Positions 8,304 through 12,720 of a stretch of DNA of 20,967 nt are shown here, in pieces. The stretch lies in the IMG/VR virus record IMGVR_UViG_3300008012_000244, positions 1-20,967 of that record. One strand, 5' to 3'. The stretch comes from a virus. Both the position numbers and the translations under genes were made by a program. Positions within the stretch are counted from its first letter, which is position 1. Every line of letters begins with the position of its first letter. The notes beneath the pieces are model-generated. The model worked only from the letters and a program-made list of their open reading frames with translations, ran no database searches and was not told the origin of the DNA.

Positions 8304-9254
8304 TTAGGCAGTTTGAATTTCAACTGCTGCTTCAGGTCTTAGGATACCATGTCCTAATGCCATTTTAGCAACCATTAAAGTTCCCTGTCTGCGGATGTCA
8401 TACTCTGACTCCATAGCTAAGTCCATTAACTTAACTGTACCAATAGCAGACTTGTGGAATACCACTGCTGCTGTATTTGAGAAGTCACCATTATATGTAT
8501 TGTTCTCTCCAGTAGATGAAGCACCTGACTGGTCTGTAAAGGCAGCAACTGCTGTGTTTGATTTCACAATGTTGACACCTGCTACTTTAAGAACTTGACC
8601 TTCTGCATACACACCATTTGTTCCGCCAAAGTCTCTATTTAAGATTTTGTCGTTTTCTACGATGTTGTAATAAGTTGATGGAGGTACGATACAAAATCTG
8701 TCATCCTCTGGTACATCTTTTTCATCCAGTGTTTGAACTGCATCAAAGATAGATGTAATAAGAGAAGCAGCATTTGTTTTTGCATCTGCATCAGTAATAA
8801 CTGCACCACCATTCTCACCATTAACAGTCGCAGAAGCCTGAGCTGCTAAGATTGCTAATTGTAATACGTGTTGATCCACTGTTCTTGCTAATGCATTACC
8901 CATTTCTGTTGAGTAAATGCTTCGTACATCATAGTGATTTTTAGCTTCATCTATCTGAGCGATAAATGAATCTGATATTAAGAGGTCATCGATTGTGATT
9001 ACTCTTTCATTTTTCTTGATGACTGAGCCTGTAATCTCATTACCTGCAGTGTGATATGCGGCTGTGGTTTTTCCAATCGCAGGAAATTGTGCAGATTTAC
9101 CTTGGCTAATTGTTCTAACCATAGTCATATCAAGCATTTGGTTCCTTCTTTGGAATGCAGCTAACACTTCACCACTGAAAACTTTGAGAAACAGAGCATT
9201 ATCGTCACCACTGTTATCTGCTTTACCTAAAAAGCTGACTGTTGCGTTTGACAT
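8304..9254 (-). CDS. Major capsid protein, gp10A-like
   Basis: The 316-residue protein matches the T7 gp10A layout throughout: DNALFLKVFSGEVLAAF near the start (T7 KLALFLKVFGGEVLTAF), then ISQGKSAQFPAIG, VITIDDLLISD, NHYDVRS, DRFCIVPPSTY, HKSAIGTVKLMDLAME, and KMALGHGILRPEAAVEI at the end. It is the HK97-fold shell protein. T7 gp10A has 345 residues; no frameshifted longer form is apparent, because the stop is followed at once by the terminator stem. The start ATG 9254 has a good Shine-Dalgarno, AAAGGAAA, six bases upstream. It follows a 126-base leader carrying a candidate phage promoter, which fits the most abundant late protein. Confidence 0.98.
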   Translation of the reverse strand: MSNATVSFLGKADNSGDDNALFLKVFSGEVLAAFQRRNQMLDMTMVRTISQGKSAQFPAIGKTTAAYHTAGNEITGSVIKKNERVITIDDLLISDSFIAQIDEAKNHYDVRSIYSTEMGNALARTVDQHVLQLAILAAQASATVNGENGGAVITDADAKTNAASLITSIFDAVQTLDEKDVPEDDRFCIVPPSTYYNIVENDKILNRDFGGTNGVYAEGQVLKVAGVNIVKSNTAVAAFTDQSGASSTGENNTYNGDFSNTAAVVFHKSAIGTVKLMDLAMESEYDIRRQGTLMVAKMALGHGILRPEAAVEIQTA

Positions 9255-9333: not shown

Positions 9334-9358
9334 GCTAAAGTTAATCTTTTGGGTGTAC

Positions 9359-9383
9359 ACCTCTCTAATGAGAGACGGTGTTA
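9359..9383 (-). promoter_or_regulatory. Candidate phage RNA polymerase promoter upstream of capsid
   Basis: The minus strand holds ACCGTCTCTCATTAGAGAGG. Aligned by eye to the T7 consensus segment CGACTCACTATAGGGAGA, the stretch CGTCTCTCATTAGAGAGG matches at 12 of 18 positions, including the TA-G start region and the downstream GAG. The TTAGAGAG core recurs upstream of the SSB gene and, among the sites I found, in no coding region. By analogy transcription would start at the G at 9365, giving a leader of about 110 bases. The core is also self-complementary (CTCTC-ATTA-GAGAG, with outer ACAC/GTGT), so read-through RNA could fold here. Overlaps the stop of the 90-residue gene. Confidence 0.55.
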
Positions 9384-9653
9384 TGAGGGAAGTTTAGTTC
9401 CTAGTTTCCAAGAGCGTAATGCCCAGTAAACAGGAGATAAGTTTTTTTGACCCTCTACTTTTTCAAGTGTTGCACCATGTCGTGCCATGAATGATTTTCT
9501 ATTTTTAGGATTGTTCCTTTTAATCTTCATGTTGGGGTCACCGAAAGAAACCTTCTTAATATTATTTGTAGATTTATCCTTAACATAAACCATGTATTTT
9601 TTGTTTTTGTTAGGATTAGATAATATTTTATTTAAAGGTTTCTCGGTAGACAT
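9381..9653 (-). CDS. Small basic protein with FGDPNM motif, unknown function
   Basis: The protein has 90 residues and is strongly basic (many Lys, Arg, Asn). It has an N-terminal Lys/Asn-rich part, a strand pair KKYMVYVKDKSTNNIKKVSF, and the motif FGDPNMKIKRNNPKNRKSF followed by ARHGA. I recall FGDPNM...NP..R..F..RH patterns in small proteins of other marine phages, but cannot name a verified function. It lies two bases after the 42-residue gene and just before the capsid promoter region, inside the morphogenesis cluster. A virion-associated, nucleic-acid-binding or capsid-accessory role is possible. The C-terminus SPVYWALRSWKLG is aromatic. Confidence 0.65.
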   Translation of the reverse strand: MSTEKPLNKILSNPNKNKKYMVYVKDKSTNNIKKVSFGDPNMKIKRNNPKNRKSFMARHGATLEKVEGQKNLSPVYWALRSWKLGTKLPS

Positions 9654-9655
9654 GA

Positions 9656-9784
9656 TTATTTTTTCTTTTTATCTTTCCAGTTATTCTGCATATCTTTGTA
9701 CGCACTTTTAGATACTGTAGAATTTTTCTTACTTCTACTTATTCCTAATTTTTTTCTTCTATTAATATTTGCGACTAATGACAT
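9656..9784 (-). CDS. Very small basic protein, 42 residues
   Basis: Translation gives MSLVANINRRKKLGISRSKK, then NSTVSKSAYKDMQNNWKDKK and two more Lys before TAA. More than a third of residues are Lys or Arg, and the end is a Lys run. The start overlaps the stop of the 13-codon minigene in a TAATG junction. The stop is followed after two bases by the ATG of the 90-residue gene, so it fits perfectly into the chain of coupled genes. The RRKK.G.SRSKK..STVS pattern looks like a conserved phage protein rather than chance, but I cannot assign a function. DNA binding or packaging-related neutralisation is a guess from charge alone. Confidence 0.62.
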   Translation of the reverse strand: MSLVANINRRKKLGISRSKKNSTVSKSAYKDMQNNWKDKKKK

Positions 9785-9825
9785 TATTTCTTTGGCTTTG
9801 GTTTTCTTTTAGTTCCGTATCCCAT
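9784..9825 (-). CDS. 13-codon basic minigene
   Basis: Right after the holin stop (two-base gap) is an ATG preceded by AAAAAAGGAG and a five-base spacer. This is the strongest Shine-Dalgarno in the window. The frame reads MGYGTKRKPKPKK and ends TAA, whose final A is the A of the next ATG (TAATG). The peptide has seven Lys/Arg of 13 residues and two Pro. It may be a functional micropeptide, or a translated leader that loads ribosomes for the following basic genes. The Shine-Dalgarno overlaps the last holin codons. It is too short for ordinary gene finders. Confidence 0.55.
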   Translation of the reverse strand: MGYGTKRKPKPKK

Positions 9826-9827
9826 AG

Positions 9828-10232
9828 CTACTCCTTTTTTAATTTACCTGCTACTTTCTCTGCACTTCGTCCTACTGTGTAGCCACCGACTCCGATAGTT
9901 AATAAAGTCCAAAGAGCATCAGGGAGATCTAAGATTATTCCCCATTCAAAAAATGCATTTGCATAAGGAACGAGTAAGTAGTTGTTAGCTACAATCATAA
10001 CTACAACCATCATTAATAATGGTCTCCAGTTACGAGCTAACCAACTTTCACTTTTAGCTTCTGCTAAAATTATATTGGCAGCAGTAGAGAGTTCTTTCAT
10101 CTCCCCTGCCATAACTTGTTGTTGGATATTAGATTTTATTTTTTCTCGCTCTTCTTTACTATCAATGGCTTTATCTACAGTTTTAAATAAAGCACCAATA
10201 ATAGGAGAAGCGGCACCTAATAATTGAATCAT
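9828..10232 (-). CDS. Holin, three-helix GTA-type
   Basis: The protein has 134 residues with a hydrophobic N-terminal segment (residues 2 to 17), a charged helix (residues 20 to 60, KEEREKIKSNIQQQV), then the motif SESWLARNWRP at 61 to 71. Two membrane segments follow (71 to 90 and 104 to 122) and a basic tail ends in KLKKE. The WLARNWRP motif before the membrane pair is typical of the GTA_holin_3TM family as I know it. A holin opens the inner membrane so that the amidase encoded at 18326 to 18790 can reach peptidoglycan. The start overlaps the scaffold stop (TAATG). In T7 the holin (17.5) is far downstream, so this place between scaffold and capsid is unusual. Confidence 0.76.
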   Translation of the reverse strand: MIQLLGAASPIIGALFKTVDKAIDSKEEREKIKSNIQQQVMAGEMKELSTAANIILAEAKSESWLARNWRPLLMMVVVMIVANNYLLVPYANAFFEWGIILDLPDALWTLLTIGVGGYTVGRSAEKVAGKLKKE

Positions 10233-10963
10233 TACATTACGTTAGAACGCTTAATTTTCTCTTCGACTGATTGTCTATAAGCGGTATCTTTTTGATACTT
10301 AGGATCATTGATTGCCCTTACGACTTCTGCAGTTGAACGATACACATCATTATCAACCTTTGCAGTTTGACCTTGCAGTAAGTCTGGTTGTGTACCAAAT
10401 TGAGCATCATATTGAGCTTTTAAGCCTTTAATTGCAAACGTTGCAGCTTCTAGTGAGCCTTTTTCTACAATTTCATTAAAGTTAGATACTTCTGCTTCAG
10501 ACATATTATTACCTGCCCACTGTACGATTTCAGAATATTTCTGTTCGCCACCTGCAGCTTGTTGAATACTTTTTACATGATTATCTGATATCGCCATTTG
10601 TCCTGCTATATAGCTATCGACTAAATCTTTTGATAATCCCTTTTCAGCTAATTTCGCATAACTCTCTTCACCAATACTTCCTTGAGAAGCAAATTCTTCA
10701 TAAAAAGGGTTTAAGTCTAATCCCGTTGCTTGTTCAATTTGTTCTTGATTAGGGGCTTGCTCTGTTTGCTGTTGTTGATTGCCTGATGAAAATTGTTTTT
10801 CTAATTCACCATAGGCTTTTGCTAAATCTTCTCCTGATTGAAATTTTTCAGGAAGCCAACTTGGTCTCTCTTGTGATTGAGAACTGACAGTTGTACTTTC
10901 AGATGTTGTGGCTGCACCTGCAGTAGGTTCTAAGCCATCTTTAATTGTTACGGTATCTACCAT
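10232..10963 (-). CDS. Capsid scaffolding protein, gp9-like
   Basis: This 243-residue protein, between portal and capsid genes as in T7, has the usual scaffold features. The N-terminus is low-complexity and Ser/Thr/Gln-rich (residues 15 to 75, including a QQQQTEQ tract). It includes RPSWLPEKFQSGEDLAKAY, the common scaffold motif for a well-packed segment after the tail. The middle is acidic and helical, and the C-terminus is basic (EEKIKRS), the end that contacts the capsid protein. T7 gp9 is 307 residues. The start ATG 10963 overlaps the portal stop (TAATG) and has AAGGAG ten bases upstream within the portal gene. Confidence 0.9.
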   Translation of the reverse strand: MVDTVTIKDGLEPTAGAATTSESTTVSSQSQERPSWLPEKFQSGEDLAKAYGELEKQFSSGNQQQQTEQAPNQEQIEQATGLDLNPFYEEFASQGSIGEESYAKLAEKGLSKDLVDSYIAGQMAISDNHVKSIQQAAGGEQKYSEIVQWAGNNMSEAEVSNFNEIVEKGSLEAATFAIKGLKAQYDAQFGTQPDLLQGQTAKVDNDVYRSTAEVVRAINDPKYQKDTAYRQSVEEKIKRSNVM

Positions 10964-12507: not shown

Positions 12508-12720
12508 TTATTGCGGCAATTGAACCCCTGACCCCGAACCTTTTAAAAGAGGAATACGTAGTATTTTTCTACCTCTTCTACTGGTTTCCACACTATCACC
12601 ATCGGATCTACTTCTACCTGATGCTTCTGCAGGCGTTGGAGACGCTTGCGTATTCATCTGACGAGGAGGTACACTTGGTGTAGGTGGTTGGGGAGAGCTG
12701 CCGCCTCCGCCAAAACACAT
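12508..12720 (-). CDS. Small virion/tail assembly protein, gp7.3-like
   Basis: The 70-residue protein starts MCFGGGGSS, continues with a Pro-rich disordered stretch (PQPPTPSVPPRQ) and ends in a basic part, RRGRKILRIPLLKGSGSG. T7 gp7.3 (99 residues, a virion protein needed for tail assembly and host adsorption) has a comparable end, SGRKRARAGGKKSLSVARSSGGG, and also lies just upstream of the portal gene. The MCFGGG start with a RAGR..LRI..GSG ending is, to my recollection, common in short proteins at this locus in marine T7-like phages. The start is two bases after the previous stop. The homology call rests on synteny and a weak C-terminal match. Confidence 0.6.
   Translation of the reverse strand: MCFGGGGSSPQPPTPSVPPRQMNTQASPTPAEASGRSRSDGDSVETSRRGRKILRIPLLKGSGSGVQLPQ

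What the first reader, a model, noticed from the sequence alone, without database searches (positions are those of the whole stretch)
9784..9825. 13-codon minigene with the best ribosome site in the window
MGYGTKRKPKPKK is preceded by AAAAAAGGAG at ideal spacing and joined to the next gene by TAATG. Such a strong site for so short a frame suggests a real micropeptide or a ribosome-loading leader for two small basic genes.
Basis: seen in the sequence. Interest (0 to 1): 0.66.

Follow-up and report, generated by a model that had tools for sequence, protein, structure and literature searches.

The report
Ultrashort basic peptide gene of phages
A 13-codon gene in an ocean phage is real: natural selection has kept its lysine-rich peptide in related phages, and it appears to belong to a large, unannotated set of 10- to 50-residue basic phage peptides, many carrying a DNA-binding-like motif, whose job is still unknown.

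Summary
The minigene exists, on the minus strand (ATG at 9825, stop 9786-9784), between a holin gene and a 42-aa gene in an Autographiviridae pelagiphage-like fragment. Its ribosome site ranks second of 25 genes, and such sites occur at chance frequency in the window, so the sequence alone proves little. Comparison does. MGYGTKRKPKPKK is residue-identical in 14 other contigs, with only synonymous changes (6:0), while the next gene differs. In a second phage group, fetched by an upstream gene rather than by the motif, 70 of 80 loci hold a 10-35 aa lysine/arginine-rich ORF in the equivalent slot. Pooled changes are 54 synonymous to 22 nonsynonymous (about 25% synonymous expected; p = 4e-17). When the minigene is missing, the next gene uses the same ribosome site, so it is not merely a loading leader. 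The slot also holds AT-hook-like peptides (KxGRPPKKK), and in four cases such a head is fused to a protein that elsewhere is the separate, coupled next gene. No Pfam, PHROG or NCBIfam model covers these peptides. Most likely it is a late-expressed polycation that binds nucleic acid, made together with its neighbour. Coding is well supported; the function is inferred.

The parts
9784..9825 (-). 13-codon minigene, MGYGTKRKPKPKK-stop
   Evidence: identical peptide in 14 other contigs, synonymous changes only
9831..9836 (-). Shine-Dalgarno AAGGAG inside the last holin codons, 5 nt between GGAG and ATG
   Evidence: local mRNA not folded more stably than shuffles (z +1.3)
9656..9784 (-). 42-aa basic ORF (phrog_25774) starting on the last base of the minigene stop (TAATG), no SD of its own
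9381..9653 (-). 90-aa basic ORF (phrog_7595, unknown function), no SD of its own
9828..10232 (-). upstream gene: 3-TM holin (PF11351 GTA_holin_3TM, phrog_3427)
10232..10963 (-). head assembly/scaffolding protein (context)
   Evidence: phrog_1052
8304..9254 (-). major capsid protein (context); 61.5% identical to Pelagibacter phage HTVC025P

Best explanation
The 13-codon frame is a translated gene selected for its peptide. It is an ultrashort member of a modular group of polycationic phage peptides that start M(G/A)YGxK or MPxGxGTYGxKxGRP. SHOWN by sequence comparison: the reading frame is conserved; the slot between the same flanking genes is filled by interchangeable short, nearly acid-free, lysine/arginine-rich peptides with a Tyr-Gly pair; and the same kind of head occurs fused to proteins that elsewhere are the separate downstream gene. 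INFERRED: the ribosome loads at the minigene's Shine-Dalgarno site, makes the peptide, and re-initiates at TAATG, so that the peptide and the next small basic protein are produced together. INFERRED, weaker: the peptide is a disordered nucleic-acid binder (AT-hook-like relatives in the same slot) that acts late in infection, during genome packaging or in the head, on its own or with its coupled partner.
For: Window clade: 14 contigs, 4 DNA haplotypes, one peptide, 6 synonymous and 0 nonsynonymous steps (p = 4e-4). Motif-blind survey using an upstream 155-aa gene: 70 of 80 loci have a 10-35 aa basic ORF with an SD in the slot plus one 3-codon remnant (MYG), 32 distinct peptides in all; mean net charge +8.9, one acidic residue in total, fewer than one large hydrophobic residue on average, 31 of 32 with YG or GY, 14 with GRP. 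Pooled 54 synonymous to 22 nonsynonymous against 25% expected, p = 4e-17. Next start at -1 or -4 relative to the stop in 61 of 71. Pattern MPxGxGTYGxxK gave 116 phage ORFs, 113 with GRP although GRP was not in the pattern. Fusions of the head to what is elsewhere the next gene: L478 vs L010 (E 3e-12, L010 being in the window's own clade), L504 vs L126 (E 2e-23), L535 and L260 vs L110 (E 3e-9, 1e-8), L188 vs L172 (E 6e-10). The same head motif plus SD in bacterial genomes is followed by unrelated sequence (control).
Against: No expression, mass-spectrometry or binding data. The window's own peptide has no GRP core. A 13-residue peptide is too short for significant homology, so its tie to the GTYG/AT-hook peptides rests on shared slot, composition and the YGxK motif; convergence is possible. 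Pfam AT_hook reached only 13.6 bits (cut-off 17.4) on the best relative. In L013 and L014 the minigene DNA has 0-1 changes although the holin differs at 33 of 134 third positions, so some constraint may also act at the nucleotide level. One locus in the survey has only a 3-codon remnant (MYG) and 9 lack the gene, so it is dispensable in some phages.
Confidence: 0.62

Rival explanations
1. Ribosome-loading leader only: the minigene brings ribosomes to the 42-aa and 90-aa genes by termination-reinitiation, and its peptide is irrelevant.
For: Strong SD on the minigene and none on the next two genes; next start within -8 to +2 nt of the stop in 71 of 71 loci of the second clade; coupling at such distances is established (PMC10666635).
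Against: Residues conserved with synonymous change; the next gene can differ while the minigene stays the same (L008-L010); phages lacking the minigene place the same SD directly on the next gene, so no leader is needed (L016; 9 of 80); in L407 and L408 the MSL gene has an SD-like site of its own yet the minigene is kept.
Confidence: 0.13
2. Lysis accessory: a cationic peptide made beside the holin that acts on the envelope, in the manner of a disruptin.
For: Next to a phrog_3427 holin here and in L260, and next to endolysin genes in L168 and HTVC111P.
Against: The slot peptides have almost no hydrophobic residues and cannot form amphipathic helices; in other lineages the same peptides follow a terminase or sit near head and tail genes; many relatives are AT-hook-like.
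Confidence: 0.08
3. The peptide acts by binding RNA or the ribosome (a translation regulator or an RNA-polymerase/termination factor) rather than DNA or the virion.
For: Arginine/lysine-rich short peptides often bind RNA (general knowledge); ultrashort length.
Against: No stable RNA structure was found around it; the GRP core in relatives points to AT-rich DNA.
Confidence: 0.12
4. Chance open frame in A-rich DNA whose SD exists only because the holin ends in KKE.
For: AGGAG-N4-8-ATG frequency in the window is at chance; the SD overlaps holin codons.
Against: Synonymous bias p = 4e-4 in the window clade and 4e-17 pooled; an equivalent gene in 70 of 80 loci of another clade.
Confidence: 0.02

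Closest known systems
AT-hook motif (Pfam PF02178)
   Same: Slot relatives carry GRP flanked by lysine/arginine (KKRGRPPMKKK, KVGRPPKKKK); both are short and probably disordered.
   Different: The window peptide has no GRP; the best relative scores 13.6 bits against a cut-off of 17.4; known AT-hooks are parts of larger proteins.
Small T7 virion proteins gp6.7 (88 aa) and gp7.3 (99 aa) (PMC11784390)
   Same: Tiny late proteins of podophages; gp7.3 lysines touch the DNA end.
   Different: 6-8 times longer, no sequence relation, other map positions.
Translational leader ORFs and lambda bar-type minigenes (the latter from memory)
   Same: Very short frame with a strong SD.
   Different: Here the amino-acid sequence is conserved over synonymous changes; bar minigenes are 2 codons and act through peptidyl-tRNA.
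phrog_31838, phrog_25774, phrog_7595, phrog_4689/DUF6321 small basic phage proteins
   Same: They are the neighbours of the slot, and one of them (phrog_31838) is also found fused to the YGK/GTYG head.
   Different: Longer proteins (42-99 aa) with their own families; the micropeptides themselves have none.
Adenovirus core peptide mu (from memory)
   Same: Short polycation packed with viral DNA.
   Different: Eukaryotic virus, made by protease cleavage, no sequence relation; analogy of a possible role only.

Membership tests
AT-hook proteins (PF02178) | GRP core flanked by basic residues, in the window peptide | tested here: not met
   MGYGTKRKPKPKK has no GRP; no Pfam hit (a doubled copy was scanned)
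AT-hook proteins (PF02178) | Pfam score above the gathering threshold, in slot relatives | tested here: inconclusive
   Best 13.6 bits vs 17.4, although GRP is present in 113 of 116
Protein-coding micropeptide gene | excess of synonymous over nonsynonymous change, frame conserved | tested here: met
Protein-coding micropeptide gene | translation product detected | not testable with these tools
   no ribosome profiling or mass spectrometry at hand
Termination-reinitiation coupled gene pair | overlap or very short distance between stop and next start, with no SD on the second gene | tested here: met
   TAATG, 42-aa gene SD -1.8 kcal/mol; in the wider set the distance is always short but the SD of the next ORF varies
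Pure translational leader (peptide irrelevant) | peptide sequence free to drift; leader required for the downstream gene | tested here: not met
bar-type toxic minigene | two-codon frame with particular rare codons | tested here: not met
   13 codons; arginine codon switches AGA/CGA/CGC between relatives
Cationic lysis peptide (disruptin-like) | amphipathic cationic peptide, lysis phenotype | tested here: not met
   almost no hydrophobic residues in 32 slot peptides; the lysis phenotype was not testable

The most novel reading that the evidence does not exclude
Aquatic phages share a detachable DNA-binding 'tag' that can be as short as 10 codons. The same YGK/AT-hook-like head is either fused to a small basic protein or supplied as its own minigene in fixed ratio by TAATG coupling, and it is packaged with the genome. 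The 10- and 13-residue forms would then be among the smallest conserved virus-encoded proteins.
Probability: 0.27. Interest if true: 0.85.

Novelty: new variant of a known kind. Interest (0 to 1): 0.62.

Why it matters
If they are DNA-binding virion or packaging factors, a common component of phages of SAR11 and other marine bacteria has been missed. The set of natural variants (free, fused, absent, AT-hook, non-AT-hook) makes the role of a 10-13 residue gene directly testable.

Tried and rejected
1) SD strength as proof of a gene: rejected, at chance frequency in the window. 2) Structured RNA around the start: none. 3) Family membership: Pfam, PHROGs, NCBIfam and PDB searches gave no convincing match for the micropeptide or for the GTYG/YGK heads; only the neighbours have models. 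4) tblastn of short heads against annotated phages is crippled by low-complexity filtering: 4 hits for a 39-aa relative, none for the 37-aa Cys form. 6) Prokaryote genome scan with the same motif: only unrelated frames, used as a control. 7) Literature: no paper found describing these peptides; P-SCSP1u cryo-EM and T7 small-protein papers checked; the disruptin comparison rests on memory, because the paper read did not describe it. 8) Structure prediction not attempted: 13 residues, disordered composition.

Full report
WHERE IT IS. The window is a 20,967-base IMG/VR virus fragment with a T7-like gene order on the minus strand: portal, scaffold, holin, [minigene, 42 aa, 90 aa], major capsid protein, tail tubular proteins. 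The capsid protein is 61.5% identical to Pelagibacter phage HTVC025P and 59.9% to HTVC011P (Autographiviridae), and the holin is PF11351/phrog_3427. The finding's coordinates are right but the gene is on the minus strand.

IS THE OBSERVATION MORE THAN CHANCE? Not from the sequence alone. The ribosome site is the second strongest of 25 genes, but AGGAG-N4-8-ATG occurs as often as in shuffles (3 vs 3.3), and the site is partly built from the holin's last codons. Comparison settles it. Loci fetched by the holin and by the capsid protein both show, right after the holin, the exact peptide MGYGTKRKPKPKK in 14 distinct contigs, namely every close relative with enough sequence. Four DNA haplotypes exist; all six differences are synonymous (GGA/GGT, ACT/ACA, AGA/CGA/CGC, AAA/AAG), p = 4e-4. 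Three or more of these contigs have a different next gene (MPGHYGKHDKNKK..., 43 aa) and one lacks the 90-aa gene. The peptide is the constant, not its neighbours.

A SECOND, INDEPENDENT PHAGE GROUP. A pattern scan for SD plus MGYG(T/K/N)K found other contigs with 10-codon (MGYGKKPKKR) and 18-19-codon (MGYGNKPYKKSKGKKKKK) genes. Because that scan chose the motif, I re-sampled this group with a motif-blind query, the 155-aa gene upstream of the slot. Of 80 loci, 70 carry a 10-35 aa ORF with an SD directly after that gene and one carries only MYG-stop; nine have none. There are 32 distinct peptides: mean net charge +8.9, one acidic residue in total, fewer than one large hydrophobic residue each on average, YG or GY in 31, GRP in 14. 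Pooled over both groups, changes along minimum spanning trees are 54 synonymous and 22 nonsynonymous, against 25% synonymous expected (p = 4e-17). The trees are rough and the steps are not fully independent, but the excess is seen in most length groups separately.

COUPLING AND THE LEADER IDEA. In 61 of 71 loci the next start overlaps the stop by 1 or 4 bases, and in the window the two following genes have no SD. Such geometry is known to give termination-reinitiation and is enriched in gene pairs encoding subunits of one complex (PMC10666635). Coupling is therefore likely, though not shown here. A leader-only role is unlikely: phages without the minigene hang the next gene on the same SD (L016; nine loci), and the peptide is under selection.

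RELATION TO A LARGER GROUP. A scan for SD plus M(G/A)YGxK returned mostly 10-55 aa K/R-rich phage ORFs, whereas a similar scan of bacterial genomes returned frames with unrelated continuations. A scan for MPxGxGTYGxxK returned 116 complete ORFs, mostly 19-60 aa, of which 113 contain GRP shortly after the searched part. In the second phage group GTYG-GRP peptides and MGYGK peptides occupy the same slot. In the window's own holin relatives the slot holds MPMGKGTYGSQKGRPPKKKK... (L015), MAYGKMMSKPKK... (L017) or MPKHYGKSKPKK... (L018). Isolates have such ORFs too: annotated in Ran and HTVC022P, unannotated in Jormungand, HTVC119P, HTVC200P, MedDCM S04-C24 and HTVC111P.

FUSIONS. Four pairs show a YGK or GTYG head fused to a protein that elsewhere is a separate gene just after a minigene: L478 vs L010, where L010 is in the window's own clade (E 3e-12); L504 vs L126 (E 2e-23); L535 and L260 vs L110 (E 3e-9 and 1e-8); L188 vs L172 (E 6e-10). 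This links head and partner functionally, on the usual logic of fused gene pairs. The window's own 42-aa partner was not found fused in the data held.

HOW IT MOST LIKELY WORKS. A polycation with one tyrosine, glycine turns and no hydrophobic side chains points to nucleic-acid binding rather than membranes. The AT-hook-like variants in the same slot point to AT-rich DNA. The position among head, terminase, holin and endolysin genes points to late expression. I therefore propose a late nucleic-acid-binding micropeptide, perhaps packaged, made in step with its neighbour. Coding potential and selection on the peptide are shown; coupling is inferred from geometry; nucleic-acid binding is inferred from composition and slot relatives; packaging is a guess.

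WHAT IT IS NOT. The window peptide is not an AT-hook by the core-motif test. It is not a bar-type minigene, not a leader only, and not disruptin-like by composition. No Pfam, PHROGs or NCBIfam family covers it or the GTYG/YGK heads.

VERDICT. It is a new variant of a known kind (small basic phage proteins), notable for its length, spread and modularity.

Noticed in passing
12508-12720 (-): 70-aa ORF MCFGGGGSSPQPPTPSV... just upstream of the portal gene has no PHROG or NCBIfam match; its position and basic, glycine-rich C-terminus recall T7 gp7.3 (recalled resemblance, not tested).
   Followed up: no
9357-9381 (-): Hairpin ACACCGUCUCUCAUUAGAGAGGUGU at the end of the 90-aa gene, ahead of the capsid gene, without a T-run; possible processing site. 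The surrounding 136 nt fold only mildly better than shuffles (z -1.54).
   Followed up: partly
9381-9653 (-): The 90-aa protein belongs to phrog_7595; another member of that family (L188) weakly matches a stretch inside a 1338-residue 'minor head protein and DNA pilot' profile (E 0.003).
   Followed up: partly
L188 1698-1810, L172 and relatives: Cysteine-rich mini-domain FKPCxGCPTxxACKRxGKC, looking like a small zinc-binding knuckle, directly after the terminase, either fused to MAYGKK or as its own 30-aa gene.
   Followed up: partly
L084 2422-2538, L089 2373-2474, L319 1900-2001, L147 1501-1626, L149 1501-1569, L320 2376-2453: Small basic ORFs, most with an SD, left unannotated in deposited marine phage genomes.
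   Followed up: partly
L008, L009, L010, L022: A 43-aa YGK-type gene (MP(G/S)HYGKHDKNKKLAAMYGDKNKVTRGD...) inserted between the minigene and the MSL gene in close relatives of the window.
   Followed up: yes
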